Below are positions 37,114-64,000 of a stretch of 64,000 bases of DNA, in pieces. Below the pieces are notes generated by a model. The model saw nothing but the letters and a program-made list of their open reading frames with translations, was not told the DNA's origin and made no database searches. Each line of letters opens with the position of its first letter. The first letter of the stretch is position 1. The stretch comes from a virus: the IMG/VR virus record IMGVR_UViG_3300028569_002824, positions 60,474-124,473 of that record. One strand, given 5' to 3'. The position numbers were made by a program, and so were the translations under genes.

Positions 37114-37116
37114 AAC

Positions 37117-37187
37117 ATCTCCAAGGGGATTTGAACCCTTACTATGTCCGTGAAAGGGACAGGTGCTAACCATTACACTATGGAGAC
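37117..37187 (-). tRNA. tRNA-Glu(TTC)
   Basis: Anticodon loop CTTTCAC in a paired GTCC/GGAC stem; T-loop GTTCAAATC; acceptor GTCTCCA/TGGAGAT. CCA not encoded. A second tRNA-Glu(TTC) lies at 52044. Confidence 0.9.
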
Positions 37188-37190
37188 ATT

Positions 37191-37265
37191 TGGAGCACTG
37201 GGTCAGAGTCGAACTGACCATAAAGGGTTTTGCAGGCCCTCGCCTAGCCGATTAGCTTCCAGTGC
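37191..37265 (-). tRNA. tRNA-Cys(GCA)
   Basis: Acceptor GCACTGG/CCAGTGC perfectly paired, anticodon loop CTGCAAA, T-loop GTTCGACTC, CCA encoded. Confidence 0.9.
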
Positions 37266-37306
37266 GTAACTGATTTATCGTCTAGTTTTAAAAATAAACA
37301 ACAGAA

Positions 37307-37654
37307 TTAATCGTTAAACCAACCCAACACGTCATTAAACGCTTCTTCGAAGCGTGTCATGTGTTGTGCAGGCTCAAACGATTCTTTGACTTTTGCTTTC
37401 TTTTTCTTGTTTTTTGATGCAGCAAAATCTGCTCCTGTAATTTTATTAAAGGGAGGGGCTTTTTGAGCAAGTTTTTTCTGTTTAGGAGAAAGTTCCTTTT
37501 CGTCTTCTGACTTTTTGTTTTCTTCCTTTTCTTTGTGTTCTAAACACTCTTCGCACTCCTCACATTCACATCCATTCACAGCATACCTACAATGCTCTGC
37601 TTTTTCGAGCATAGTTGCATAAGCTTCACTAAGGAGTTTTTCATCATTATGCAT
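37307..37654 (-). CDS. Lys/Glu-rich protein with putative capsid-targeting N-terminus
   Basis: 115 aa. N-terminus HNDEKLLSEAYATML: LSE-A fits the (I/L)xE-(A/G/S) site cut by T4-type prohead proteases. Then a Cys/Glu segment (CECEECEECLEHKEKEENKK), a Lys-rich middle with ELSPKQKKLAQK, and an amphipathic C-terminus ending GWFND. Shares layout and the (E)L(S/T)(P/A)KQKKL motif with 37780-38055. Candidate internal head or core protein. Confidence 0.6.
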   Translation of the reverse strand: MHNDEKLLSEAYATMLEKAEHCRYAVNGCECEECEECLEHKEKEENKKSEDEKELSPKQKKLAQKAPPFNKITGADFAASKNKKKKAKVKESFEPAQHMTRFEEAFNDVLGWFND

Positions 37655-37684
37655 AATATTTTACTTAATCAAACATCTAATGAA

Positions 37685-37700
37685 AAAGCATCCTTGCTTT
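37685..37700 (-). terminator. weak intrinsic-terminator-like hairpin
   Basis: Minus strand: AAAGCA-AGGA-TGCTTT followed by TT, downstream of the gene at 37780-38055. Short stem; tentative. The rest of 37655-37779 shows no gene. Confidence 0.25.
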
Positions 37701-37779
37701 GAAACCAGCTTATACAGCTTCTTTTACTGTATCACACAGATTAGTATTAAGAGCAGCAAGCCTACCAAACACCAAAAGA

Positions 37780-38055
37780 TCAGTCTTCAAAATAATTCCA
37801 AAAATCTTCGTACAATCTTTCGAAACTTTCTGCTACTTTTTCTTTCTTCGTCATCTTCTTCTTCTTCTTCATAGCAGCTTGAAGAGCTGGTGGCAATTTC
37901 TTTTGCTTGGCGGTAAGTTCACTCCCACCCTTTTCTGCTTTCTCTTCCTTCTCATCTTCCTTCTTAGCCCAAGGTGGGACCCAATCTTTCCCCTTTCCTT
38001 TCTTCTCTAAGATTAATTCATATGCTTCAGCTAATAGCTTTACGTCGTTGTTCAT
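37780..38055 (-). CDS. Lys-rich protein with putative capsid-targeting N-terminus
   Basis: 91 aa. MNNDVKLLAEAYELILEKKG: LAE-A fits the T4 prohead-protease site. Then basic low-complexity sequence with ELTAKQKKLPPAL and KKKKKMTKKEK, and a C-terminal SFERLYEDFWNYFED like the neighbour's. Paralogue of 37307-37654. Such small basic proteins with cleavable N-termini are typical of T4 internal and core proteins. Confidence 0.6.
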   Translation of the reverse strand: MNNDVKLLAEAYELILEKKGKGKDWVPPWAKKEDEKEEKAEKGGSELTAKQKKLPPALQAAMKKKKKMTKKEKVAESFERLYEDFWNYFED

Positions 38056-38103
38056 AATGCTATTTAAGGAAAAGGCTGTATATTTATGATGTAAAATAAG
38101 CCG

Positions 38104-38175
38104 AGCCGGGTATCGGATTCGAACCGATGACCTACGGTTTACAAAACCGTTGCACTACCACTGTGCTAACCCGGC
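38104..38175 (-). tRNA. tRNA-Thr(TGT)
   Basis: Acceptor GCCGGGT/ACCCGGC, anticodon loop TTTGTAA between ACGGT and ACCGT, T-loop GTTCGAATC. CCA not encoded. Confidence 0.9.
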
Positions 38176-38189
38176 AACACGAAAAAAAT

Positions 38190-38260
38190 AGCGGGTGAGA
38201 GAATCGAACTCTCCTAAAGATGCTTATGAGACACCTGAATTCGCCAGAATTCTAACCCGC
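38190..38260 (-). tRNA. tRNA with CAT anticodon (Met or Ile2)
   Basis: Acceptor GCGGGT/ACCCGC, anticodon loop CTCATAA, T-loop GTTCGATTC. The D-arm is odd: two GAATTC copies flank TGGC, giving a very small loop. No initiator C1-A72 mismatch, so elongator Met or, if modified by the phage TilS, Ile2 reading AUA. Confidence 0.8.
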
Positions 38261-38274
38261 ATTATAAATCTTAC

Positions 38275-41924: not shown

Positions 41925-42820
41925 TGATCAATTCTATTAGTGATATTCTTAATTTTAGGTACGATCCACGTTTTTTAACGTGGTTTAAGCCAAATTTATT
42001 ATCACAGCAAGAAATTGAAAAACACTTATTAATAGCACCGCTCGTGTTTAAAAACTTCGACATTAGTATAATTCATCAACAAATAAATGTTAATACTGAC
42101 TTTACGACAAATGATGTTTATTGTGACGTTGTCCGACTTCGTAGGATAAAAACCATTCTTACGAATCATCCAGGTGAATTTGATAATCTTGTGTGCTCTG
42201 GAGATGATATACATTTAAGTAGAAATATTGAATATTTAAAAGAAGTTAAACATTTATTTAAACATATTTATTACGAAGCAAAAGACATAGAATGTGATTG
42301 GGTAACCACCATACCAATGGGTACAATTATGGCCTATATGTTAAGATGTGGAGGAGATCAAATACTACACCATATAAACAAACCAAAAAATAAAACTAAG
42401 CTAATTGGTTCTGCTTTTGGTAGTAGATGGCCTTTAGTAACCAAAAAAGTTCAAGACAGAGGATTGTTAGCAGAGTTCACGCAAAGCTCTCCATTTATGG
42501 ATAATATGTTTTGCAATCCATTAGATTATTTTGAAAAGCTAAGTGATTATAAATTTTTTGCTTGTCCATTAGGGAATGGTATTCAGACTCCTAAGATATG
42601 TGAATCTATTCTATGTGAAACAGTACCTGTAGTAACAAATCATATTGCGCACAGAGAACTAAGAGACATTTACAATTTACCACTCTTAATAGTAGATAAA
42701 TGGGAGGACTTAACAGAAGACTTCTTAAACGAAGCTTATGACAGTAAGTATAAACATATAGATTGGCAAAAAGAAAAAGCAAAGTTTTTAGTAGAAAACT
42801 TTAAAAATCTATTAAAATAA
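41924..42820 (+). CDS. exostosin-like (GT47) glycosyltransferase, copy 1
   Basis: 298 aa from the ATG overlapping the upstream stop (MINSISDILNF; copy 2 starts MINSIKEILNF). C-terminal half has KFFACPLGNGIQTPKICESILCETVPVV, the family's nucleotide-sugar motif (acidic E..LCE.VPVV). The first 115 residues differ from copy 2, the last 160 are nearly or fully identical (see repeat). Two bases before the WcbI gene. Confidence 0.75.
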   Translation: MINSISDILNFRYDPRFLTWFKPNLLSQQEIEKHLLIAPLVFKNFDISIIHQQINVNTDFTTNDVYCDVVRLRRIKTILTNHPGEFDNLVCSGDDIHLSRNIEYLKEVKHLFKHIYYEAKDIECDWVTTIPMGTIMAYMLRCGGDQILHHINKPKNKTKLIGSAFGSRWPLVTKKVQDRGLLAEFTQSSPFMDNMFCNPLDYFEKLSDYKFFACPLGNGIQTPKICESILCETVPVVTNHIAHRELRDIYNLPLLIVDKWEDLTEDFLNEAYDSKYKHIDWQKEKAKFLVENFKNLLK

Positions 42821-43525
42821 ATATGAAAAAAATACTCTTCCACGGAAATTGTCAAACTTGTGCTATATCAAGATGGTTTGAGCAAAATTATTCAACCAAA
42901 TATCAATTTATTAATTGTACAGAAGCTAATTTAGCTATGTATTGGAGTCGTAGTAATCCAACATTTGCTTTGTGGACTCCTCCCAACGTTAAGAAATTAC
43001 AGAATACAAAAACCAGGAAAGCCGTACAAGAAAAAATAAGAGAGGCTGATATTTTTGTGTTCATGCATCATACAACAAACATTGACGAACTTAACACTGT
43101 TAATCTACACGATAACGTAGCACGGGGCTTGAAAATATGCCTTCCTAATAACAGATTTAGTGCATATCCAATATGTAGCCGGAGCTTAAAAATTTACCTC
43201 GAGTATATAAGACAAAATATAACTAAAGATCCTGTAAAAATAGCAGAGTATATTAAAAATGAAGACGATCCAGTTTTTACTGAATTATTATACACACAAT
43301 ATCCATTTGAGGGATATACAGAAAAAAGTTTATCCCAAAACCCAAGCCAACACGAAAAATGCGTTGAGCTATATGACAAGGTAATACCCATAAACGATTT
43401 TGTTGAAAAAAATTGGAAAGACCATTTGCTATTTTCTAGTTTGAATCATCCAACAGAAATGTACTACAGAGAGCTAATTTCAAGGTTGTTGACTCTGTTA
43501 GGAGAAGATCTCGATTTATTAGAAA
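42516..43525 (+). repeat. 1,010-bp direct repeat, copy 1
   Basis: Matches 48771-49780 with no difference that I can find by eye; offset 6,255 bases. Covers the 3' end of the GT47-like gene and most of the WcbI-like gene. Before 42516 the copies are about 90% alike back to 42240; after 43525 they diverge at once. Confidence 0.9.
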
Positions 43526-43674
43526 AAACGCCCTTTATCAAGCACCCTGAAGGAGAAGGTGAAGGTGGCGTTTCTATAGATATAACTGAATTTTTATTTT
43601 TTAAAAAACACGTTCCGAACTTATTAATCCCAAAAGACATTAAACTACAAAGTTTCAATGGATATCTACAATGA
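42823..43674 (+). CDS. WcbI-like polysaccharide biosynthesis protein, copy 1
   Basis: 283 aa. KKILFHGNCQTCAI (2-15), with the HGNCQ nucleophile-elbow-like motif, is the start of the WcbI family (SGNH-like, proposed acyltransferase in capsule synthesis). The next motif block DKVIPINDFVEKNW follows in the middle. C-terminal 45 residues differ from copy 2 (49078), ending in SIDITEFLFFKKHVP. Probably acylates the glycan made here. Confidence 0.75.
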   Translation: MKKILFHGNCQTCAISRWFEQNYSTKYQFINCTEANLAMYWSRSNPTFALWTPPNVKKLQNTKTRKAVQEKIREADIFVFMHHTTNIDELNTVNLHDNVARGLKICLPNNRFSAYPICSRSLKIYLEYIRQNITKDPVKIAEYIKNEDDPVFTELLYTQYPFEGYTEKSLSQNPSQHEKCVELYDKVIPINDFVEKNWKDHLLFSSLNHPTEMYYRELISRLLTLLGEDLDLLEKTPFIKHPEGEGEGGVSIDITEFLFFKKHVPNLLIPKDIKLQSFNGYLQ

Positions 43675-48172: not shown

Positions 48173-49075
48173 ATGATTAATTCTATAAAAGAAATTCTGA
48201 ATTTTAGGCATGGCGTCAGATTTTATAAGGGGAATTGGACTTATCCTGCAGTGTCAATAGAAACGATTAACGATATGTTAATTCCAAAGCCACTTGTCAG
48301 CAAGCACTTTAAATTAGTTATTTTTGAAGATGGTGTGCATATTAATTATGATTCAACATCCAACGATGTGTATTGCGACCGCCTCAGCATGGGTAATTTA
48401 AAAAAAGCACTTAATAATCTCAATGGGATACAGTTGAACAATGTTGTATGTGCAGGACGCGATCCACACTTAAGCGTCACACTTGAACAATTAAAAGAGG
48501 TAAAACATTTATTCAAAAAAATTTACTACGAAGCAAAAGACATAGAATGTGATTGGGTAACCACCATACCTATGGGTACGATTATGGGATATATGTTAAG
48601 ATGCGGAGGAGACAAAATACTTCATCATATAAACAAACCAAAAAATAAAACTAAGCTAATTGGTTCTGCTTTTGGTAGTAAATGGCCTTCAGTAACCAAA
48701 AAAGTTCAAGACAGGAGATTGTTAGCAGAGTTCACACAAAGCTCTCCATTTATGGATAATATGTTTTGTGATCCATTAGATTATTTTGAAAAGCTAAGTG
48801 ATTATAAATTTTTTGCTTGTCCATTAGGGAATGGTATTCAGACTCCTAAGATATGTGAATCTATTCTATGTGAAACAGTACCTGTAGTAACAAATCATAT
48901 TGCGCACAGAGAACTAAGAGACATTTACAATTTACCACTCTTAATAGTAGATAAATGGGAGGACTTAACAGAAGACTTCTTAAACGAAGCTTATGACAGT
49001 AAGTATAAACATATAGATTGGCAAAAAGAAAAAGCAAAGTTTTTAGTAGAAAACTTTAAAAATCTATTAAAATAA
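48173..49075 (+). CDS. exostosin-like (GT47) glycosyltransferase, copy 2
   Basis: 300 aa. N-terminal half (KGNWTYPAVSIETINDMLIPKP) is only distantly like copy 1, while residues from about 120 on are 90-100% identical. This points to gene conversion or a recent duplication followed by acceptor-domain exchange, with the donor half kept. Followed after two bases by WcbI copy 2. Confidence 0.75.
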   Translation: MINSIKEILNFRHGVRFYKGNWTYPAVSIETINDMLIPKPLVSKHFKLVIFEDGVHINYDSTSNDVYCDRLSMGNLKKALNNLNGIQLNNVVCAGRDPHLSVTLEQLKEVKHLFKKIYYEAKDIECDWVTTIPMGTIMGYMLRCGGDKILHHINKPKNKTKLIGSAFGSKWPSVTKKVQDRRLLAEFTQSSPFMDNMFCDPLDYFEKLSDYKFFACPLGNGIQTPKICESILCETVPVVTNHIAHRELRDIYNLPLLIVDKWEDLTEDFLNEAYDSKYKHIDWQKEKAKFLVENFKNLLK

Positions 49076-49780
49076 ATATGAAAAAAATACTCTTCCACGG
49101 AAATTGTCAAACTTGTGCTATATCAAGATGGTTTGAGCAAAATTATTCAACCAAATATCAATTTATTAATTGTACAGAAGCTAATTTAGCTATGTATTGG
49201 AGTCGTAGTAATCCAACATTTGCTTTGTGGACTCCTCCCAACGTTAAGAAATTACAGAATACAAAAACCAGGAAAGCCGTACAAGAAAAAATAAGAGAGG
49301 CTGATATTTTTGTGTTCATGCATCATACAACAAACATTGACGAACTTAACACTGTTAATCTACACGATAACGTAGCACGGGGCTTGAAAATATGCCTTCC
49401 TAATAACAGATTTAGTGCATATCCAATATGTAGCCGGAGCTTAAAAATTTACCTCGAGTATATAAGACAAAATATAACTAAAGATCCTGTAAAAATAGCA
49501 GAGTATATTAAAAATGAAGACGATCCAGTTTTTACTGAATTATTATACACACAATATCCATTTGAGGGATATACAGAAAAAAGTTTATCCCAAAACCCAA
49601 GCCAACACGAAAAATGCGTTGAGCTATATGACAAGGTAATACCCATAAACGATTTTGTTGAAAAAAATTGGAAAGACCATTTGCTATTTTCTAGTTTGAA
49701 TCATCCAACAGAAATGTACTACAGAGAGCTAATTTCAAGGTTGTTGACTCTGTTAGGAGAAGATCTCGATTTATTAGAAA
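48771..49780 (+). repeat. 1,010-bp direct repeat, copy 2
   Basis: Partner of 42516-43525. The two ends break inside genes, so recombination between them would delete about 6.2 kb (ten genes' worth of glycan functions) and leave functional hybrids. Confidence 0.9.
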
Positions 49781-49950
49781 GAACTGAAAATATTGAACAC
49801 CCCAAAGGAGAACGAACAGGAGAATTTATAAACATAAACGAATTTGCATTTTTTAAAAAACATGCTCCAAATTTAATAATGCCAAGAGAAACGGGAACTA
49901 ATCAGATGATAAGTTTTAATGGCATATTCGCACCATTTAAATCAAAATAG
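49078..49950 (+). CDS. WcbI-like polysaccharide biosynthesis protein, copy 2
   Basis: 290 aa; first 234 residues identical to copy 1, then LLERTENIEHPKGERTGEF instead of LLEKTPFIKHPEGEGEGG and a different end (SFNGIFAPFKSK). HGNCQ motif intact. The swap affects only the C-terminus, which may set acceptor or partner choice. Confidence 0.75.
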   Translation: MKKILFHGNCQTCAISRWFEQNYSTKYQFINCTEANLAMYWSRSNPTFALWTPPNVKKLQNTKTRKAVQEKIREADIFVFMHHTTNIDELNTVNLHDNVARGLKICLPNNRFSAYPICSRSLKIYLEYIRQNITKDPVKIAEYIKNEDDPVFTELLYTQYPFEGYTEKSLSQNPSQHEKCVELYDKVIPINDFVEKNWKDHLLFSSLNHPTEMYYRELISRLLTLLGEDLDLLERTENIEHPKGERTGEFININEFAFFKKHAPNLIMPRETGTNQMISFNGIFAPFKSK

Positions 49951-51402: not shown

Positions 51403-51429
51403 ACTAGTTGTTTAACACAGCTAAAAAAG

Positions 51430-51502
51430 CTACGGAGATAGGACTTGAACCTATAACCCTCAGATCCAAATTCTGATGCACTACCAATTGTGCTACTCCG
51501 TA
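51430..51502 (-). tRNA. tRNA-Gln(TTG)
   Basis: Acceptor TACGGAG/CTCCGTA, anticodon loop ATTTGGA between TCAGA and TCTGA, T-arm ATAGG/CCTAT intact. CCA not encoded. Its 5' two thirds is copied in the pseudogene at 51969. Confidence 0.9.
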
Positions 51503-51512
51503 TTAAATTAGA

Positions 51513-51893
51513 CTAAGAGTTGTTTGATAAAAAGACGTTGTTGCAGCGATTCATAATCGGCAGGGCAATCGGAAACTTTAAAGGCTTAATAATAATTATT
51601 TTTGAAGATTTATCTTCGATTAATTTATGAAATTGTTTTTGATCTGGATCTACAACAAGATTTACTCGATCTGCAAGAGCTGAAGGAATTGAAACTTCAC
51701 CAAACGTTATAATGGTAACTGATCTTTCATTTTTGTAATGATCAACAAAAATATAAATCTGTTTGAAAGGAATGTCAGTTTGATTGGTAAATTGTATACA
51801 AGCTGGATCATGAGATTCGAGAGCATCAGATAGGCTCGTGCCATTTACTTTTTCGTAGGCTTCTTCTAATAATATTTGATCTTTTGTTTTCAT
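51513..51893 (-). CDS. protein with putative capsid-targeting N-terminus (126 aa)
   Basis: Start at ATG 51891-51893: MKTKDQILLEEAYEKV. Compare T4 internal protein III, which starts MKTYQEFIAE; LEE-A fits the same cleavage rule. The rest is a compact alpha/beta body (FKQIYIFVDHYKNERSVTIITFG) with no known motif. Candidate head-packaged protein. The frame is open upstream to 51944 but that part is junk-like. Confidence 0.6.
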   Translation of the reverse strand: MKTKDQILLEEAYEKVNGTSLSDALESHDPACIQFTNQTDIPFKQIYIFVDHYKNERSVTIITFGEVSIPSALADRVNLVVDPDQKQFHKLIEDKSSKIIIIKPLKFPIALPIMNRCNNVFLSNNS

Positions 51894-51968
51894 GTACATT
51901 ATATTTAAGGTATTTTGTTTTTTTTTTGCAGCATTATTGAACAAATTTGTATTTAATCAAAATATCCT

Positions 51969-52037
51969 CATGGAGGGACTCGAACCTATAACACTTAGAT
52001 CCAAATTCTGATGCACTACCAATTGTGCTACTCCGTA
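51969..52037 (-). pseudogene. chimeric tRNA pseudogene (Gln 5' part, Leu 3' part)
   Basis: From 52037 down to about 51985 the sequence matches tRNA-Gln (51430) almost perfectly; the last 25 or so bases and the flank match tRNA-Leu (52229). The T-stem is now ATAGG opposite CCCTC and the acceptor has a C-A mismatch, so it cannot fold normally. One base change (TCTGA to TCTAA) also breaks the anticodon stem. Confidence 0.75.
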
Positions 52038-52043
52038 TTAAAC

Positions 52044-52118
52044 TGGCACTCCCAAGGGGACTTGAACCCCTGCTACCTCCGTGAAAGGGAGATGTGCTAA
52101 CCGCTACACTATGGGAGC
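52044..52118 (-). tRNA. tRNA-Glu(TTC), second copy
   Basis: Acceptor GCTCCCA/TGGGAGT, anticodon loop CTTTCAC, T-loop GTTCAAGTC, CCA encoded. Similar in the D-arm to the copy at 37117. Confidence 0.9.
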
Positions 52119-52125
52119 AAAAATT

Positions 52126-52210
52126 CGGAAGAGGAGAGATTCGAACTCTCGGAGGCGTTCGCCTCGGCGGTTTAGTAAACCGCTGCAATAGACCACTCTG
52201 CCACCCTTCC
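52126..52210 (-). tRNA. tRNA-Ser, anticodon ACT
   Basis: Class II tRNA with a long variable arm (GAGGCG..CGCCTC). Anticodon loop TTACTAA between GCGGT and ACCGC gives ACT, reading AGT/AGC; bacterial genes nearly always have GCT here. Acceptor GGAAGGG/CTCTTCC. CCA not encoded. Confidence 0.8.
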
Positions 52211-52228
52211 TTTTATTTAATTAAAATA

Positions 52229-52310
52229 TGCTCATGGAGGGACTCGAACCCACATTCCTCGCGGAACCAGATCCTAAGTCTGGCGCGTCTGCCAATTTCG
52301 CCACATGAGC
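52229..52310 (-). tRNA. tRNA-Leu(TAG)
   Basis: Class II, acceptor GCTCATG/CATGAGC, anticodon loop CTTAGGA between CCAGA and TCTGG, T-loop GTTCGAGTC. Source of the 3' part of the pseudogene. Confidence 0.9.
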
Positions 52311-52317
52311 TTTAAAA

Positions 52318-52393
52318 TGGTGCTCGGGGTGGGACTCAAACCCACGATAGCCTGCGTGTAAAGCAGGTACTTTAGTCGCTAAGTTACCCGAGC
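52318..52393 (-). tRNA. tRNA-Val(TAC)
   Basis: Anticodon loop TTTACAC between CCTGC and GCAGG; acceptor GCTCGGG/CCCGAGC; T-loop GTTTGAGTC; CCA encoded. Confidence 0.9.
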
Positions 52394-52401
52394 CTTAAAT
52401 G

Positions 52402-52475
52402 TAGACCTGGTTGGGCTCGAACCAACGACCTGTTCATTATCAATGAACTGCTCTAACCAACTGAGCTACAAGTCT
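52402..52475 (-). tRNA. tRNA-Ile(GAT)
   Basis: Anticodon loop TTGATAA between GTTCA and TGAAC; acceptor AGACTTG/CAGGTCT with one G-T pair; T-loop GTTCGAGCC. Reads AUU/AUC; AUA would need the CAT tRNA plus TilS. Confidence 0.9.
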
Positions 52476-52480
52476 GAAAA

Positions 52481-52554
52481 TGGTGCAGCATGAGAGAATC
52501 GAACTCTCGTCTGGGCTTTGGAAGAGCTCCGTTCTACCATTAAACTAATGCTGC
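52481..52554 (-). tRNA. tRNA-Gly(TCC)
   Basis: Anticodon loop CTTCCAA; acceptor GCAGCAT/ATGCTGC; T-loop GTTCGATTC; CCA encoded. One A-C mismatch in the anticodon stem. Confidence 0.85.
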
Positions 52555-52559
52555 AAATT

Positions 52560-52633
52560 TCGAGCATGCGGGATTCGAACTCGCGACCTCCTGGTCCCAA
52601 ACCAGGCGCTCTACCAAGCTAAGCTAATGCTCG
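52560..52633 (-). tRNA. tRNA-Pro(TGG)
   Basis: Anticodon loop TTTGGGA between CCTGG and CCAGG; acceptor CGAGCAT/ATGCTCG; T-loop GTTCGAATC. Confidence 0.9.
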
Positions 52634-52639
52634 TCAAAA

Positions 52640-52724
52640 TGGTGGGCAGTGCAGGACTCGAACCTGCGAAGCCCGAAGGCAGGAGATTTACAGTCTCCGG
52701 TAATTGCCGCTATACGAACTACCC
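52640..52724 (-). tRNA. tRNA-Tyr(GTA)
   Basis: Class II; anticodon loop CTGTAAA between GGAGA and TCTCC; acceptor GGGTAGT/ACTGCCC; T-loop GTTCGAGTC; CCA encoded. Confidence 0.9.
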
Positions 52725-52751
52725 ATTATTGTTTTTATTTAATCTATTAAG

Positions 52752-52828
52752 TGGCGTTTCCAGCTGGGCTTGAACCAGCAACCTACGCTTTAGAAGAGCG
52801 TTGCTCTATCCAATTGAGCTATGGAAAC
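52752..52828 (-). tRNA. tRNA-Arg(TCT)
   Basis: Anticodon loop CTTCTAA between ACGCT and AGCGT; acceptor GTTTCCA/TGGAAAC; T-loop GTTCAAGCC; CCA encoded. Reads AGA/AGG, favoured in AT-rich genes. Confidence 0.9.
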
Positions 52829-52832
52829 AAAG

Positions 52833-52907
52833 TGGTACCCCAGGTAGGAGTCGAACCTACGTTCGCGGTTTATGAAACCGACGTTCTAACCGTTGAACTA
52901 CAAGGGT
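52833..52907 (-). tRNA. tRNA with CAT anticodon (Met or Ile2)
   Basis: Anticodon loop TTCATAA; acceptor ACCCTTG/CTGGGGT with a T-T mismatch; T-loop GTTCGACTC; CCA encoded. It lies eight bases downstream of tilS, which suggests it may be the lysidine substrate tRNA-Ile2, but acceptor identity bases do not decide it. Confidence 0.8.
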
Positions 52908-52915
52908 ATTAAAAA

Positions 52916-53575
52916 TTAATTCTTTACTACACTATCTAAATGTTCTTTCGTCTTCTTGAAGACTACTTTGTGGAGTCCTTTATATTTCTTATCAATTATT
53001 GGAAGAACTACTTTTCTAGTCCAGTTTCTCATTAGAGTCATATCAGAGTTTAGTTCGTCCTCTCTGATATACTCAACTAAATTACTATCCATTGCATGCT
53101 TGGCGAAGTCAATCTTTTTGTTTAATAAAAATGGACGAAATACAGTTACTTCAGGATACTTGCAGTAGAATTGGATTGGCACAAACTCTGGATGTCCTTT
53201 TAAGAAGTTCAAGAAGTAAGATTCTACACAATCATCTAGGTGGTGTGCTGTGCAGATGAAATCAATTCCTTGACTCTTTGCATATTCTCTAAGAGCTTTG
53301 TATCTTAGATTTCTGCAGAAGTCTTCTTTGCTTCCTTTGGAATATTTTTCAGTAGCTGTGATTGTGTGTAGAGGGATTTGTTCTTTGTAGCAAAATCTTT
53401 GAACGTCCTCTGCAATTTGGTCATCTTGTTCAATGAACTTGTTGTTAATGTGTACTGCAATAAAGTTGAAGTTTTTCTTTTTGAGGGAGTGGCAAGCTGC
53501 TACGCTATCGATGCCTCCAGAGAGTGCAAAGATAAACTTTGTGTTTGGAAAATATGATTTATTATATTGTAGCAT
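52916..53575 (-). CDS. tilS: tRNA(Ile)-lysidine synthetase (short form)
   Basis: 219 aa, the N-terminal PP-ATPase domain only (E. coli 432 aa). SGGIDS (19-24) is the ATP pyrophosphatase loop; AVHINNKF, GSKEDFCRNLRYKAL and CTAHHLDDCVESYFLNFLKG are the TilS-specific blocks. The enzyme attaches lysine to C34 of the CAT tRNA-Ile2 so it reads AUA. Embedded among 14 tRNA genes, directly upstream of a CAT tRNA. Short TilS proteins are known to be active. A TtcA-like thiolase is the alternative, but the Cys motifs for that are absent. Confidence 0.88.
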   Translation of the reverse strand: MLQYNKSYFPNTKFIFALSGGIDSVAACHSLKKKNFNFIAVHINNKFIEQDDQIAEDVQRFCYKEQIPLHTITATEKYSKGSKEDFCRNLRYKALREYAKSQGIDFICTAHHLDDCVESYFLNFLKGHPEFVPIQFYCKYPEVTVFRPFLLNKKIDFAKHAMDSNLVEYIREDELNSDMTLMRNWTRKVVLPIIDKKYKGLHKVVFKKTKEHLDSVVKN

Positions 53576-53587
53576 TTAATTTGAAAG

Positions 53588-53673
53588 TGGTACCCAGGGC
53601 GGGACTCGAACCCGCACACCATTACTGATAAGGGATTTTAAGTCCCTTGTGTCTGCCATTTCACCACCTGGGC
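53588..53673 (-). tRNA. tRNA-Leu(TAA)
   Basis: Class II; anticodon loop CTTAAAA between AGGGA and TCCCT; acceptor GCCCAGG/CCTGGGT; T-loop GTTCGAGTC; CCA encoded. Reads UUA, the commonest Leu codon in such AT-rich genes. Bases 53674-53734 show no gene. Confidence 0.9.
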
Positions 53674-53734
53674 TTTTATAAAATGTATACTCTATTAATA
53701 AGAAGGATTGGTCAACAATGTTTTTATAAAAAAA

Positions 53735-53806
53735 CTCCTGAGGTAGGATTCGAACCTACGACCAATCGGTTAACAGCCGACCGCTCTACCACTGAGCTAC
53801 TCAGGA
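53735..53806 (-). tRNA. tRNA-Asn(GTT)
   Basis: Anticodon loop CTGTTAA between GTCGG and CCGAT; acceptor TCCTGAG/CTCAGGA; T-loop GTTCGAATC. Confidence 0.9.
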
Positions 53807-53835
53807 ATAATTTATTTTCTCCGATTTTTTTATCC

Positions 53836-53857
53836 GGTTCATCGGGAACCTTTTTTT
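53836..53857 (+). terminator. orphan intrinsic-terminator-like hairpin
   Basis: GGTTC-ATCGG-GAACC followed by seven T on the plus strand, between tRNA genes that all run on the minus strand. No plus-strand gene ends here that I can see. A second small inverted repeat, AGATTCA-GT-TGAATCT, lies at about 53880-53895. Confidence 0.5.
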
Positions 53858-53951
53858 GTCACTGTCAAAGATCGTTGTTAGATTCAGTTGAATCTTGAAT
53901 AGGAACCATCCTTTAATTACCACAAAAAGGCAACAATTATTATTTAAAAAA

Positions 53952-54024
53952 TGGAGGCAGGGGGATTCGAACCCCCGACATCCAGCTTGCAAAGCTGGCG
54001 CTCTACCAACTGAGCTATACCCCC
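53952..54024 (-). tRNA. tRNA-Ala(TGC)
   Basis: Anticodon loop TTTGCAA between CCAGC and GCTGG; acceptor GGGGGTA/TGCCTCC; T-loop GTTCGAATC. First gene of the tRNA cluster in transcription order. Bases 54025-54141 hold no gene. Confidence 0.9.
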
Positions 54025-54207: not shown

Positions 54208-54945
54208 ATGAAACCAACTATCTATGTTCTTCACGTAGGAAAAACTGGAGGGACCGCATTAAAATTAGCATTACTTGAAGGACAAAAATTAAAGAATTGT
54301 ACAGGAGAGCAAAACAATATTTTCCTTTATAACAAACATTTCAACAGAATAAACAAAATACCGTTAAGCAAACAGAAAGCCACTATCTTGCTTTGTGCTC
54401 ACTCTACTTCTATTGAGGATATTCCAGTGGGAGACAAAATAGTAATATTCTTAAGGGATCCTATAACCAGATTCGTCAGTGCATTTTATCATCGAAGGAG
54501 AATGTATAAAAACCAGTCAGAGCAAGAGAAAATATTGTTTAGTTATTTTCGTACACCAAACCAACTAGCAGCTTCTCTGTCAAATGTGTGTTGTGATAAA
54601 AATAAATTAGCATTGAGTGCACTACACGAGATTGGCCATATACACCATCTAATCCACTGGTACAAGAGCATAGAATATTTCAATTCTCGCATTGACGATA
54701 TACTTTTTATTGGGTTTACAGAAACGTTAGATAGTGATTTTGATAAGTTAAAAAAACTGTTAAATCTTCCGTCTAAAATAACTCTCCCTAAAGACTCCAT
54801 AGGAGTTATGAAAGGACCAACTAGGATACGAGAGCAAGACAAGATAATTCAAGAGCCTGGATTGACATTCCTAAAAGAGTGGTACAAACAAGATATTGAA
54901 TTCGTGGCTCTATGCAAAGAGATAATGGCGAGCAGAACTTTATAA
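54208..54945 (+). CDS. sulfotransferase family protein
   Basis: 245 aa. LHVGKTGGTALKLAL (8-22) and FLRDPITRFVSAFYHRR (81-97) give the PAPS motifs in the form used by heparan-sulfate-type and related bacterial enzymes. Middle is His-rich (HEIGHIHHLIHW). Lone plus-strand gene with its own promoter and flanked by tRNAs, so possibly a recent arrival. Confidence 0.82.
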   Translation: MKPTIYVLHVGKTGGTALKLALLEGQKLKNCTGEQNNIFLYNKHFNRINKIPLSKQKATILLCAHSTSIEDIPVGDKIVIFLRDPITRFVSAFYHRRRMYKNQSEQEKILFSYFRTPNQLAASLSNVCCDKNKLALSALHEIGHIHHLIHWYKSIEYFNSRIDDILFIGFTETLDSDFDKLKKLLNLPSKITLPKDSIGVMKGPTRIREQDKIIQEPGLTFLKEWYKQDIEFVALCKEIMASRTL

Positions 54946-57832: not shown

Positions 57833-58566
57833 ACGGAATCAGAGGAGTTGTTCTTAAAGTGAGTAGTAATAACACGTCGGTCTGAGCAACGAAAACGGCC
57901 ATGTTCGTCTATAATCTCTCCAATAAAAGCAAACTCATCTAAACATCTGGATCGCTTTATCTTAGTGCTTATACCTTCATAATTGAAAAATTCATCATGC
58001 ACGAACAAATCAGAAACAATAAGTTTGTAAATCACATCAGCTAAAAAACGTTGATCTACTGTACAGTCTCTTTTTCTGGTATTTTTTTGGATATATGTAG
58101 ACATTAATTCAGAAAAATTTGGAATTGAGTTTCCTTTAGCTCCCCACATACCAGCATTAATTAGATAGCGATGTCCTTTTGGATGGTCTCTTATTATGTG
58201 AAATTTTTTTTCTGAATTAATCCATTCGTTTACAGCAATTTCATCTCTAATACTTATTCTGGAATCACAATCTCTAGATATGAAACGCTCTACTTGCTGG
58301 TCTGCTAAGGGCCTAAAACGCCAAAGTGACCCTAAAAATCCACTATTTTCTTCTCGTGTGTTTATTAGACGTACATTTAATGCAGCTAACTCATCTAATA
58401 CGATAGACGGTACGGAATTGTTGTGGTATACCCACATTTTCCAGTCTCGAAAATAAGTTTCTTTGAGTTCAGCGTTTTTGATAGCACCCGTTGTATAAAT
58501 TGGGTTGTCTCCATATAAAGAAAAGCTAATAACTTTCACACTAAATCTTGTTGTATGTTTGATCAT
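57829..58566 (-). CDS. glycosyltransferase-like protein of unknown family
   Basis: 245 aa from the ATG at 58564-58566 (MIKHTTRFSVKVISFSLYG); an upstream TTG is rejected. FLGSLWRFRPLADQQVERFISRDCDSRIS, WINSEKKFHIIRDHP and INAGMWGAKG are recognisable as a family common in cyanobacteria, marine bacteria and large viruses near TPR or glycosyltransferase genes, with RDCDSR as a DxD-like site. Function inferred only. Overlaps the next gene by 26 bases. Confidence 0.65.
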   Translation of the reverse strand: MIKHTTRFSVKVISFSLYGDNPIYTTGAIKNAELKETYFRDWKMWVYHNNSVPSIVLDELAALNVRLINTREENSGFLGSLWRFRPLADQQVERFISRDCDSRISIRDEIAVNEWINSEKKFHIIRDHPKGHRYLINAGMWGAKGNSIPNFSELMSTYIQKNTRKRDCTVDQRFLADVIYKLIVSDLFVHDEFFNYEGISTKIKRSRCLDEFAFIGEIIDEHGRFRCSDRRVITTHFKNNSSDSV

Positions 58567-59074
58567 ACTCGAGCTGAGCAATACGGTAATAACCTTGATC
58601 TCCGTCTTTTACGAGATAATCACCCTTCTTAAGAACCATGTCTTCTCCCCACGGAGCTTTAAATGTAATTGGTTGTTCGATGTTATCCACTCTTGCTACT
58701 GTTCTAGGACTTTGTTCAGGAATTACTGTCTCTCCAATCTTGCCTGTATATAATTTAGGAAACTTAGCTACCTTTACAACATATTGTTCTTTACTTGGCC
58801 CAGACATTATAACATCTTCGGGTTGTGCGACATTTTGCGTTTCTTTACCGTCCGCAGTATTAGTAACAACTTGTTGTTGTTCTTTTGCTACAGCGTATGA
58901 CATCGCAGGCATATTTTCCGTACTGTTAGCAAACGCATATTTCTTTGGTTGTTTTGTTGTTTGCTTCCATTGCAAAGACGGAAGTATAGACTCAAGACCA
59001 TTACCTCCCTCATTCTCTTTAATATATATGGATTGGTATGCTTCTTCTAATAATGTTTGGTCTTTGGATTTCAT
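58541..59074 (-). CDS. protein with putative capsid-targeting N-terminus (177 aa)
   Basis: MKSKDQTLLEEAYQSIYIKE: same N-terminal tag as 51513 and 63020, LEE-A cleavage-like. The body is unrelated to them; the C-terminus (PITFKAPWGEDMVLKKGDYLVKD, YYRIAQLEYD) looks like a small beta-barrel. Candidate internal head protein carrying an effector domain. Confidence 0.6.
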   Translation of the reverse strand: MKSKDQTLLEEAYQSIYIKENEGGNGLESILPSLQWKQTTKQPKKYAFANSTENMPAMSYAVAKEQQQVVTNTADGKETQNVAQPEDVIMSGPSKEQYVVKVAKFPKLYTGKIGETVIPEQSPRTVARVDNIEQPITFKAPWGEDMVLKKGDYLVKDGDQGYYRIAQLEYDQTYNKI

Positions 59075-59116
59075 GTGAAGTTATTTATAGTAGGAATGTG
59101 CATTTTAATGTACAGG

Positions 59117-60508: not shown

Positions 60509-61054
60509 TTAAAATTTATAATTAAACCGAATAAGATCATCTTGAAAATGCTTTTCTACTAATTGTATTGTCTCTGGAGTGTGATGTGATCTGTAGTCTT
60601 TTTCTCTAGGATTTGCTCTTTCTTTGGCGTGTATGTCTTTATTTATTTTTAAATTATATCTTTTGTTGATTTCATCAATGTCGTCATTTCTAGTTTCAAA
60701 CTTTATAATATAATCCAATTCTTCATCTATATAATCACAACACGTTAAACCCGCTTCCCATGGAACTTTAGGTATAGAGGTAAGAAATTCTTCTAAAGTT
60801 TCAAATTTTATTCCTCTCCGTCTGGTACTATACCACGTTGAACGATACATGGATATAACTCTATCAAATGGATTTCTGACGACAGCAAATTTAACACTAT
60901 TTGTCCACACATCAGGTCCACATAGGTTCTTTGCAAAACTGGCAGTATGATGCTTTTGATGGAGGGTAATTGAGCGGTCAGCAACAAGAGATCTTTCTAT
61001 TGAAGTGCCACTACATCTAGGAGGATGTATAAAGATAATATTGTCTATAATCAT
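60509..61054 (-). CDS. sulfotransferase family protein
   Basis: 181 aa. FIHPPRCSGTSIERSL (8-23) and VVRNPFDRVISMYR (58-71), IIKFETRNDDIDEI and a terminal FQDDLIRFNYKF. Short Sulfotransfer_2-like enzyme closest in layout to 39446 and 47533. Downstream of a lipoprotein gene by nine bases. Confidence 0.82.
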   Translation of the reverse strand: MIIDNIIFIHPPRCSGTSIERSLVADRSITLHQKHHTASFAKNLCGPDVWTNSVKFAVVRNPFDRVISMYRSTWYSTRRRGIKFETLEEFLTSIPKVPWEAGLTCCDYIDEELDYIIKFETRNDDIDEINKRYNLKINKDIHAKERANPREKDYRSHHTPETIQLVEKHFQDDLIRFNYKF

Positions 61055-61479: not shown

Positions 61480-61527
61480 CTATTTAACAAACTCAACAAG
61501 TTTTAATAATTGTTGATCTTTATTCAT
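61480..61527 (-). CDS. 15-aa minigene or remnant with the N-terminal tag
   Basis: MNKDQQLLKLVEFVK then TAG, starting immediately at the TAA of the upstream cassette gene (TAAATG). Looks like the first codons of another cassette whose body is lost. Confidence 0.4.
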   Translation of the reverse strand: MNKDQQLLKLVEFVK

Positions 61528-61893
61528 TTAAAATATTCCTTCTAGTTCTGGAAGCTTTTTAATAAGCTCATCAAAGTTTGACTCCAGTGTTATCCGCATG
61601 TCCGATTTGTTAATATAATTGCTGATTGATGATCTCTCAATTGCATTTGTAAGGGTTGTTAATACAAGTTCTTTAAACTTGTCTAAATTTATTTTACCGT
61701 CTTCCTCTGTAATATCATAAATGATAAGAATAGGTCCTTTATCGGTTGTTTTAACAATTTCGTGACGAAAGTTAAATCTTTCTATAAATTTTTTGACGAG
61801 AGTCATGTCAAGAATATTTTCAAGCCAAATTTGAGCTTGCTTAGGAGCTTTTATTATTGAAGGATAGCTTATTTCTAGTTTAAACGTTTTCAT
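61528..61893 (-). CDS. cassette protein with KKLPELEGIF terminus (121 aa)
   Basis: Body helical/beta mix (KTFKLEISYPSIIKAPKQAQIWL, GKINLDKFKELVLTTL). Lacks the DQ-type N-terminal tag but has the C-terminal KKLPELEGIF. Stop touches the next ATG. Function unknown. Confidence 0.55.
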   Translation of the reverse strand: MKTFKLEISYPSIIKAPKQAQIWLENILDMTLVKKFIERFNFRHEIVKTTDKGPILIIYDITEEDGKINLDKFKELVLTTLTNAIERSSISNYINKSDMRITLESNFDELIKKLPELEGIF

Positions 61894-62393
61894 TAAAATA
61901 TATCTTTCAATTCTGGTAACTTGTCTTCCATCCGACGTACTTTTCGTCTCATACTTTGGTATTTACTTATATCTTCTTCTGAAAAGCCATTCATTTTTAT
62001 TGGTCCTACGACTCTTAAATCGTCTGGAAGTTGTTCCAATCTTTTAATTCCACTATGTTCTAAATTTAAATATCCACCCACTTTTAAATTTGTCGGAAGT
62101 GATTTAAGTTTTTCACAACGATGCAAATTCGCGTTTCCTATTACTGTTAAATTATCAGGAAGAGATTCAAGATTTGCGCAATTGCTGAGTATTAAGTTTC
62201 TTCCAACTAACTTCAATGTAGAAGGAAGTGATTTAAGATCCAAAGTTCCAGGTAAATATAAATGTGATGTACTTCCATTTTTAATGTACTTTTCTATTGC
62301 TGAATCTGTAGTTTCTCCAGGATAGTGACAATTTTCTTGCTTGTTTGACACTTCTTCATAAAGAAGTTCTAATTGCTTCTGATCCGTATTCAT
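61893..62393 (-). CDS. leucine-rich-repeat-like cassette protein (166 aa)
   Basis: N-terminus NTDQKQLELLYEEV (a degenerate tag). Residues about 45-140 are four to five 21-residue repeats of the LPxNLxVxGxLxL type (ESLPDNLTVIG, KSLPTNLKVGGYLNL), as in phage and bacterial surface repeat proteins. C-terminus DKLPELKDIF. Overlaps neighbour as TAATG. Confidence 0.6.
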   Translation of the reverse strand: MNTDQKQLELLYEEVSNKQENCHYPGETTDSAIEKYIKNGSTSHLYLPGTLDLKSLPSTLKLVGRNLILSNCANLESLPDNLTVIGNANLHRCEKLKSLPTNLKVGGYLNLEHSGIKRLEQLPDDLRVVGPIKMNGFSEEDISKYQSMRRKVRRMEDKLPELKDIF

Positions 62394-63020
62394 TTAAAAT
62401 ATTCCTTCTATTTCTGGAAGTTTCTTCCTCAGCCCTTGAAGCTTTTCTTCTTCTTTTCTCCACTCATAGGCTTTACGGACCCATTCTATTTCATTTTCAA
62501 TTTCTTTAATACTGGTTTTGTCGGTAAAAGCAAACTTGATATGGTGTTTGATGTATTTTTCAAAAGCTTCCGTGAGTTTAGAAACATCTTCTGCTGAAAC
62601 GGTTTCAACAGCGCCTGCTTGAAGTGGATCGAAAAACGTCAAACAAATTTTACTTTTTGAATTTGAGACAATCCTTTGAAATGTGAGCATCGTGTTTTTT
62701 GCCATTATTCTTACGACATACCCCTCATAAAGAGAATTAAAGTATTTTGTTATTTCTGGACCTAGGTTCAACTTTGCTAGCGTTTCATCAGGAATGTCAT
62801 GATGCATTTTCGTTAGCTTTATCCAAAATGCGGTATAAAGCGAAGTTGGTAAAAAATGAAAGCGCTTTTTAGTGTTTTCTGTTGATGTAATTGTCGAAGC
62901 AATTGTCGTTGCAAATCTCTGTGAAAGGTCTTTAGCAAGCAACTCTTCTTCTTTAGTAAAATTGAAGTCATTGACCGTCGACTCACCAATCGGTTTTAAT
63001 TTCTTTTGATCTTTGTTCAT
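62394..63020 (-). CDS. cassette protein (208 aa)
   Basis: N-terminus NKDQKKLKPIGESTVNDF (IGE-S fits the prohead-protease rule), a helical body, C-terminus KKLPEIEGIF. Body is unlike the neighbours. No enzyme motif recognised. Confidence 0.55.
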   Translation of the reverse strand: MNKDQKKLKPIGESTVNDFNFTKEEELLAKDLSQRFATTIASTITSTENTKKRFHFLPTSLYTAFWIKLTKMHHDIPDETLAKLNLGPEITKYFNSLYEGYVVRIMAKNTMLTFQRIVSNSKSKICLTFFDPLQAGAVETVSAEDVSKLTEAFEKYIKHHIKFAFTDKTSIKEIENEIEWVRKAYEWRKEEEKLQGLRKKLPEIEGIF

Positions 63021-63592
63021 TAAAATATTCCCTCTATTTCCGGAAGTTTTTTCTTTAGTTCTTCATACTTCTTGAGCCTCTCATTATGCTCTTTGAATTC
63101 TTCGTTAGAAAAATTGGAAGAATGAACCTTGCCTTTTACATCAACATAATGCTTTATGTCTTTTAGTTGCATGTCGGTTGCAGTCATAAATAGATCTTCT
63201 CCAATTTTTAAATTTTTAGGTAAAGCATTGATATAGGTATAACCAATGATTAAGTTCTCTCCAACTGTTAAGTTGTCTGGAAGGGAGGTTAATGACGAGC
63301 TTCTTAAGTCTAATCTTGCTGACACCTTCAAGTTTTTTGGTAAAGTTTTAAACTTTGAGCCTTCTGCGTCCATAGTTCCGGTTACGGTCATGTTATCTGG
63401 AAAGCGTTTAATTTTTGCATATCTCATTTGCAAATTTCCTTTGACTATAAAATTATCTGGAAAAGAAACTCCGTTTGCCCTTGTTAAATCTAAGTCTCCT
63501 ATGTTTCCAAAAGTGATATATTTGTCAATTATTGTTTGAGTTTCAACTGTGCTATAAGCCTCTTCAAGCAACGTTTGATCTACAGTTTTCAT
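63020..63592 (-). CDS. LRR-like cassette protein with full N- and C-terminal tags (190 aa)
   Basis: N-terminus KTVDQTLLEEAYSTV, middle of LPDNLTVGENL / LPKNLKISxRLDL repeats (about 50-150), C-terminus KKLPEIEGIF. The only gene here showing both tags intact. The LRR-like part is distantly similar to 61893-62393. Confidence 0.62.
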   Translation of the reverse strand: MKTVDQTLLEEAYSTVETQTIIDKYITFGNIGDLDLTRANGVSFPDNFIVKGNLQMRYAKIKRFPDNMTVTGTMDAEGSKFKTLPKNLKVSARLDLRSSSLTSLPDNLTVGENLIIGYTYINALPKNLKIGEDLFMTATDMQLKDIKHYVDVKGKVHSSNFSNEEFKEHNERLKKYEELKKKLPEIEGIF

Positions 63593-64000
63593 TTAAAATA
63601 TTCCCTCTATTTCCGGTAGCTTAGCTTCCATCTTCCTAACCTTTGGAGAGTTTTCATCTATATCAGCATTTGCAATAATTTTTTGGCTAGCATAATATTC
63701 CATTCCATCCATCCAATAGTCAAGATTTTCAATTGCTCTGTCTAATTCCAACAAATAATCTTCTACAATATTTGTTGGAATATCAATAATTTTGAATCTT
63801 AGAGAATTTTGATCTATTTTAGTGTCAAATGCATATTTTTTTGTTGGATTATAATATTGCTTCATTAGAGTTTCTGCGTGCCTTGTAAGTCTCCAAGCAA
63901 TGCCATCTACGAGTTCTGGTGTTGTTTTGTTTCCATGCATGTCTGTTGAATTCATCTGTACTATAATATCAGCAACTGCACTGGTTTCTTCTCCTTTCAT
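63593..64000 (-). CDS. cassette protein, 5' end beyond window (135+ aa)
   Basis: C-terminus AKLPEIEGIF as in the neighbours. The first in-window Met has no DQ tag, so translation probably starts outside the window. Body unlike the others (EDYLLELDRAIENLDYWMDG). Confidence 0.5.
   Translation of the reverse strand: MKGEETSAVADIIVQMNSTDMHGNKTTPELVDGIAWRLTRHAETLMKQYYNPTKKYAFDTKIDQNSLRFKIIDIPTNIVEDYLLELDRAIENLDYWMDGMEYYASQKIIANADIDENSPKVRKMEAKLPEIEGIF

What the first reader, a model, noticed from the sequence alone, without database searches (positions are those of the whole stretch)
61480..64000. Tandem cassette array: conserved ends, swapped middles
Five consecutive genes end in nearly the same peptide, KLPE(I/L)(E/K)(G/D)IF, and four carry some form of the DQ-type start; each stop touches or overlaps the next ATG (TAAATG or TAATG). 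The interiors include LRR-like, helical and mixed proteins. The matching DNA at both ends suggests duplication with replacement of the core, like a cassette system for making variant head or effector proteins.
Basis: partly seen in the sequence, partly recalled or inferred. Interest (0 to 1): 0.7.

Follow-up and report, generated by a model that had tools for sequence, protein, structure and literature searches.

The report
Phage gene array with shared tails
A giant relative of phage T4 carries at least five back-to-back genes whose proteins share an ending and often a start but differ in the middle, most likely a set of fast-changing proteins loaded into the virus head and injected into the host, though no experiment or close relative yet confirms that.

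Summary
Five genes on the minus strand (61528-64000) end in KLPE(I/L)(E/K)(G/D)IF; every stop touches or overlaps the next ATG; a 15-codon stub (61480-61527) follows. The array runs off the end of a 124 kb fragment of a T4-type giant myovirus. Only three full genes plus the stub have the DQ start. The tail occurs nowhere else in the contig, and an exact search of IMG/VR and of GTDB genomes found none.

The tail is conserved as a peptide: synonymous differences are common (pS 0.54), amino-acid changes few (pN 0.10). Two cores are homologous LRR-like proteins; the other three show no similarity to them or to each other. A related phage (G018) has a parallel array of eight genes with a T4-like start (MKSFKTFLTE), its own tail (RFSKRRQWKK), seven related cores and one unrelated core.

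The DQ start resembles T4's capsid-targeting sequence. It sits on diverse proteins, is absent from homologues of one of them, and such genes have T4-type late promoters more often than others (14/28 versus 246/1417).

Best reading: a T4-internal-protein-like set of virion effectors with a second, C-terminal tag. Core replacement is likely but not proven. All cores but the LRR pair are orphans, so exchange between phages could not be tested.

The parts
63593..64000 (-). g1: 135-aa orphan core, tail KLPEIEGIF; 5' end at the contig end, true start may lie beyond
63020..63592 (-). g2: 190 aa, N-tag MKTVDQTLLEEAY, LRR-like core (LPxNLxV repeats), tail KLPEIEGIF
62394..63020 (-). g3: 208 aa, N-tag MNKDQKKL..IGES, orphan core, tail KLPEIEGIF
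61893..62393 (-). g4: 166 aa, N-tag MNTDQKQLELLYEE, LRR-like core homologous to g2, tail KLPELKDIF
61528..61893 (-). g5: 121 aa, no DQ tag, orphan core, tail KLPELEGIF
61480..61527 (-). stub: 15-codon ORF MNKDQQLLKLVEFVK*, N-tag only, probable remnant of a lost sixth gene
62993..63053 (-). junction block g2/g3 (tail + TAATG + N-tag); 84% identical over 61-62 nt to 62366-62427 and 61500-61560
62366..62427 (-). junction block g3/g4 (tail + TAAATG + N-tag)
61500..61560 (-). junction block g5/stub (tail + TAAATG + N-tag)
58541..59074 (-). non-array gene with the same N-tag (MKSKDQTLLEEAY) on a PGDYG-like core; its homologues in other phages lack the tag
59082..59089 (-). T4-type late promoter TATAAATA directly before the tagged gene at 59074
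51513..51893 (-). non-array gene with the N-tag MKTKDQILLEEAY
37307..37654 (-). non-array gene with related N-tag MHNDEKLLSEAY
37780..38055 (-). non-array gene with related N-tag MNNDVKLLAEAY, TAAATA upstream of its ATG

Best explanation
The array is a late operon of phage-specific virion-internal proteins that works like the T4 internal proteins. A short N-terminal tag targets each protein to the prohead core and probably carries a prohead-protease site; a variable core acts in the host after ejection. In this phage lineage the proteins also share a C-terminal tail, KLPE(I/L)xxIF, conserved as a peptide, which I infer binds a common partner (scaffold, shell or protease) or is clipped at LPE. 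The genes arose by tandem duplication; cores then diverged and in several cases were probably replaced, with the tail-stop-start-tag junction kept. Shown: the tandem array, the peptide-level conservation of the tail, the portability of the N-tag, its link to late promoters, and a parallel array in a related phage. Inferred: head packaging, cleavage, ejection, host target and the role of the tail.
For: T4-type phage: terminase, tail sheath, UvsX and DNA polymerase. N-tag DQxLLEEAY-like on many unrelated proteins here and in relatives. In one case (58541-59074) the tag is an N-terminal addition missing from four homologues in other phages. N-tagged genes have TAAATA just upstream of the ATG in 14/28 cases versus 246/1417 for other genes, p = 1e-4; in G018 the same element precedes the tail sheath, the likely tube gene and array genes h1 and h5. 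The G018 array starts MKSFKTFLTE / MKPFDTFIAE, close to T4 ipII and ipIII MKTYQEFIAE, read directly from T4. T4 IPs have 10-19 residue CTS propeptides and diverse cores (PMC9026906, PMC3012670), and T4 Alt is cut at both ends, at ITE-6 and LTE-619 (PMC5694885). Tail pS 0.54 versus pN 0.10.
Against: No virion proteomics. No sequence homology to any IP, and no PHROG, Pfam or PADLOC match above threshold for any array protein. g5 lacks the N-tag. The array's own promoter is off the contig. The T4 IPs are described as basic, but g1 (pI 4.7) and g5 (pI 5.9) are acidic (PMC9026906). The G018 tail has no LxE site, so C-terminal cleavage cannot be general. No prohead protease was identified in the fragment.
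Confidence: 0.47

Rival explanations
1. Plain tandem paralogues: one ancestral gene was duplicated several times, selection kept both ends, and the cores diverged beyond recognition, with no replacement by foreign cores.
For: In G018, seven of eight cores are recognisably homologous. In the window g2 and g4 are homologous. The order of predicted elements in a low-confidence model of g5 (strand, helix, two strands, helix) is loosely like that of the G018 core.
Against: g1, g3, g5 and the LRR cores show no similarity at all (core z-scores -0.9 to 1.2). An LRR repeat is not a plausible divergent state of the other cores. G018 h6 keeps the tail on an unrelated 110-aa core. The pre-tail of g4 matches g1, not g2.
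Confidence: 0.3
2. Active cassette exchange: the junction blocks are homologous recombination sites at which whole cores are swapped, deleted and imported between phages.
For: Junction DNA is 84% identical over 61-62 nt, spanning tail, stop/start and N-tag. A tag-only stub looks like a deletion product at a junction. The pre-tail and core similarities disagree for g1, g2 and g4.
Against: Synonymous divergence in the tails is high, so no recent exchange is visible. No other phage with this tail was found, and cores g1 and g3 have no relatives at all.
Confidence: 0.15
3. The conserved ends are translation signals: the end of each gene carries the ribosome-binding site of the next, and the shared tail peptide is a by-product of translational coupling.
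For: GAAGGAATATTTTAAATG puts an AAGGA-like site about 9 nt before the next ATG.
Against: KLPE lies 5' of that site and its codons vary only synonymously. g4/g5 lacks GGA but keeps the tail. g5 keeps the full tail although only a stub follows it. The G018 tails do not consistently encode such a site.
Confidence: 0.06

Closest known systems
T4 internal head proteins IPI, IPII, IPIII and their capsid-targeting sequence
   Same: Short N-terminal element shared by otherwise different small proteins of a T4-type phage; late promoters near other genes with the element; fast-evolving, lineage-specific cores; the sister array in G018 starts almost like T4 ipII/ipIII.
   Different: Five or more overlapping genes in one array; a shared C-terminal tail, which I do not know of in the IPs (the three T4 IP C-termini printed do not resemble each other); no sequence homology; no virion data.
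T4 Alt, an ejected protein processed at both ends by gp21
   Same: An ejected head protein with functional elements at both termini; the tail here contains LPE, which fits the (L/I)-x-E pattern of the Alt sites.
   Different: The Alt C-terminal propeptide is 63 residues (PMC5694885); here only five residues follow LPE. The G018 tail has no such site.
SPN3US / phiKZ paralogous head proteins with shared propeptides (e.g. gp53/gp54)
   Same: Paralogues with identical N-termini and strongly diverged bodies in giant phage heads (PMC5694885).
   Different: Propeptides are long and N-terminal; I know of no shared C-tail or overlapping array.
PeSL mobile regulatory cassettes of T4-type phages
   Same: Repeated elements between genes that could serve as exchange points.
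   Different: As I recall, those are intergenic promoter/stem-loop elements; here there is no intergenic DNA and the repeat is coding.

Membership tests
T4 internal protein (IP) / CTS proteins | 10-19 residue N-terminal targeting propeptide ending at an (L/I)-x-E prohead-protease site | tested here: inconclusive
   g2 LEE|AY, g3 IGE|S, g4 LYE|E and stub LVE|F fit by sequence; g5 has no tag; start of g1 unknown; cleavage not assayed
T4 internal protein (IP) / CTS proteins | Conserved N-terminal tag on diverse mature cores | tested here: met
   Same tag on LRR-like, orphan and PGDYG-like cores; absent from PGDYG homologues elsewhere
T4 internal protein (IP) / CTS proteins | Late expression | tested here: inconclusive
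   Other tagged genes enriched for T4-type late promoters; the array's own promoter is beyond the contig end; G018 h1 and h5 have the element
T4 internal protein (IP) / CTS proteins | Sequence homology to IPI, IPII, IPIII or Alt | tested here: not met
   No PHROG or Pfam family above threshold for any array protein
T4 internal protein (IP) / CTS proteins | Present in the mature head and ejected with DNA | not testable with these tools
   Needs virion proteomics; virus is uncultured
Doubly processed ejection protein (T4 Alt type) | C-terminal (L/I)-x-E site cut by the prohead protease | tested here: inconclusive
   LPE is invariant in all five tails but not present in the G018 tail; cleavage not assayed
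PeSL-type mobile cassette | Intergenic promoter plus stem-loop repeat between genes | tested here: not met
   Genes overlap or abut; the repeat is coding

The most novel reading that the evidence does not exclude
Giant T4-type phages load sets of variable effectors into their heads through a two-ended address: an N-terminal capsid-targeting tag plus a lineage-specific C-terminal tag, so that any core placed between the two is packaged, giving each phage lineage its own expandable effector array.
Probability: 0.22. Interest if true: 0.7.

Novelty: new variant of a known kind. Interest (0 to 1): 0.45.

Why it matters
T4 internal proteins are known as injected counter-defence proteins with a shared N-terminal address and diverse bodies. 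An array in which the C-terminal address is shared as well, with a parallel but different tail in a related phage, would offer a natural set for asking what a C-terminal propeptide does in head loading (an open question for T4 Alt in PMC5694885). It also gives a sequence signature, tandem genes with a shared tail and unrelated cores, for finding uncharacterised injected effectors in uncultured giant phages.

Tried and rejected
Database searches with g1-g5 gave only LRR repeat hits: Edwardsiella phage Edno5 for g2 and weak faecal-phage hits for g4. Degenerate tail and junction patterns in IMG/VR and GTDB gave no hits or only chance hits, checked by translation; the pattern was over-specified and would have missed g3, g4 and the stub. 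AlphaFold of g5 alone was low confidence (pLDDT 55). The G018 core model (pLDDT 67) found no convincing fold match in BFVD or PDB. Profile comparison of the G018 family with g1, g3 and g5 gave no signal. A scan of 14 phage records for adjacent genes sharing C-tails found only this array and the one in G018. HTVC008M had no N-tagged genes. Rejected: chance similarity, and RBS-only conservation. PeSL and integron-like cassettes were rejected because the repeat is coding and the genes overlap (the integron comparison is from general knowledge; attC-type sites were not searched for).

Full report
What is there. The window is bases 60474-124473 of a 124,473-base linear IMG/VR record. The virus is a T4-type giant myovirus: T4-like large terminase, tail sheath, UvsX, DNA polymerase and helicase, and, judged by eye from the ORF list, GroEL-, DnaK- and ClpB-like proteins. 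The array lies at the very end of the record, minus strand, and runs off it. Five ORFs end in KLPE(I/L)(E/K)(G/D)IF. The junctions are TAAATG or TAATG. After g5 there is a 15-codon ORF, MNKDQQLLKLVEFVK*, whose DNA matches the start of g4: a tag without a body, best read as the remnant of a lost gene. The DQ start is therefore on g2, g3, g4 and the stub, not on g5; the start of g1 cannot be judged because its ATG is the last three bases of the contig.

Chance. On the last 12 residues the ten array pairs score 33-57; among 11,925 other gene pairs of the contig only one pair scores that high (60), and the next is 32. The contig contains a 96%-identical duplication of two genes, which would account for that pair. 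The tail pattern has four matches in the record, all in the array, and none for the reversed control. A scan of neighbouring genes in 14 phage records found shared C-tails only here and in one relative.

The tail is a conserved peptide. Codons of the five tails differ mostly at synonymous sites: pS 0.54, pN 0.10 over nine codons; pS 0.71, pN 0.03 over KLPE. Only five sequences are available, so the numbers are rough, but the direction is clear. This argues against both recent recombination and a purely DNA-level signal such as the RBS of the next gene, although the last codons also contain an AAGGA-like site about 9 nt before the next ATG.

The middles. g2 and g4 are homologous LRR-like proteins (E = 1e-13). 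With 20 N-terminal and 14 C-terminal residues removed, no other pair exceeds shuffled sequence (z -0.9 to 1.2). g1, g3 and g5 have no detectable relatives in phage records, PHROGs or Pfam (g1 and g3 were also scanned for in IMG/VR). The nine residues before the shared tail are similar in g1 and g4 (SPKVRKMEA / RRKVRRMED; 0.04% of genome pairs score as high) but not in g2 and g4, the pair with homologous cores. This conflict suggests that a body or an end has been exchanged inside the array; it rests on one pair among ten.

A parallel array. In the related record G018 (locus L184, 527-4805) eight tandem, mostly overlapping genes share a start such as MKSFKTFLTE or MKPFDTFIAE and a tail such as RFSKRRQWKK. 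Seven cores are homologous; h6 has an unrelated 110-residue body and matches the family profile only in the tail (positions 168-187, E = 0.006). Synonymous differences in these tails are saturated. The starts closely resemble T4 ipII and ipIII, MKTYQEFIAE, read from the T4 record.

The start tag. DQxLLEEAY-like starts occur on several other ORFs of this contig and on many in relatives. On 58541-59074 the tag sits on a PGDYG-like core whose homologues in Yersinia, Vibrio and Xanthomonas phages start without it, so it is a portable module. Across 14 records, tagged genes carry the T4 late-promoter core TAAATA within 10 nt of the ATG in 14 of 28 cases against 246 of 1417 for other genes (p = 1e-4). 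The presence of L-x-E in the motif is partly built into the search and is not counted as evidence.

How it most likely works. In T4, internal proteins carry 10-19 residue capsid-targeting propeptides, have diverse bodies, are loaded into the prohead core and injected, and at least IPI blocks a host restriction enzyme (PMC9026906, PMC3012670). Alt is trimmed at both ends by the prohead protease, at ITE-6 and LTE-619, with unknown purpose at the C-terminus (PMC5694885). By analogy the array would be a set of injected proteins with an N-terminal address and a second, C-terminal element that binds a common head component or is clipped at LPE. The first part rests on the evidence above; the second is inference. 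LPE is invariant here but absent from the G018 tail, so a binding role is more general than cleavage.

Verdict. It is a new variant of the T4 internal-protein theme, with a C-terminal tag that I have not seen described for it (a few literature searches found none). Main limits: orphan sequences, truncated array, no virion data, and a database that may hide near-identical records.

Noticed in passing
window 59082-59089; 14 related records (L126-L185 and G000): The T4 late-promoter core TAAATA ends 5-7 nt before the ATG in 161 of 260 cases where it lies within 10 nt of a start. Pelagibacter phage HTVC008M shows the same spacing for TATAAATA, while the T4 stretch checked has 13-32 nt. This spacing would put the ATG near the transcription start, suggesting leaderless late mRNAs.
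   Followed up: partly
window 42228-43637 and 48483-49889: A 1.4 kb stretch covering parts of two genes of the glycan/sulfotransferase-like cluster is present twice at 96% identity, about 6.3 kb apart, with different flanks.
   Followed up: partly
window 37115-38261 and 51429-54024: 18 tRNA genes in two clusters, with small genes carrying the LLxEAY-type tag lying among or next to them.
   Followed up: no
L004:11987-13312 (record 51987-53312): A 441-aa glycine-rich orphan with the DQ tag (MKNSDQKKLESIYES) and a TATAAATA promoter right before its ATG: a further candidate virion protein.
   Followed up: partly
window 60509-61054, 54208-54945 and many others: Numerous proteins starting like P-loop sulfotransferases (IFIHPPRCSGTS, YVLHVGKTGGTA) and glycosyltransferases are scattered over the contig; judged by eye only.
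   Followed up: no
record G000:C1:1-257 (L002): Short tandem repeats at the left end of the record, including a 125-b perfect repeat; possible assembly end or terminal repeat.
   Followed up: no
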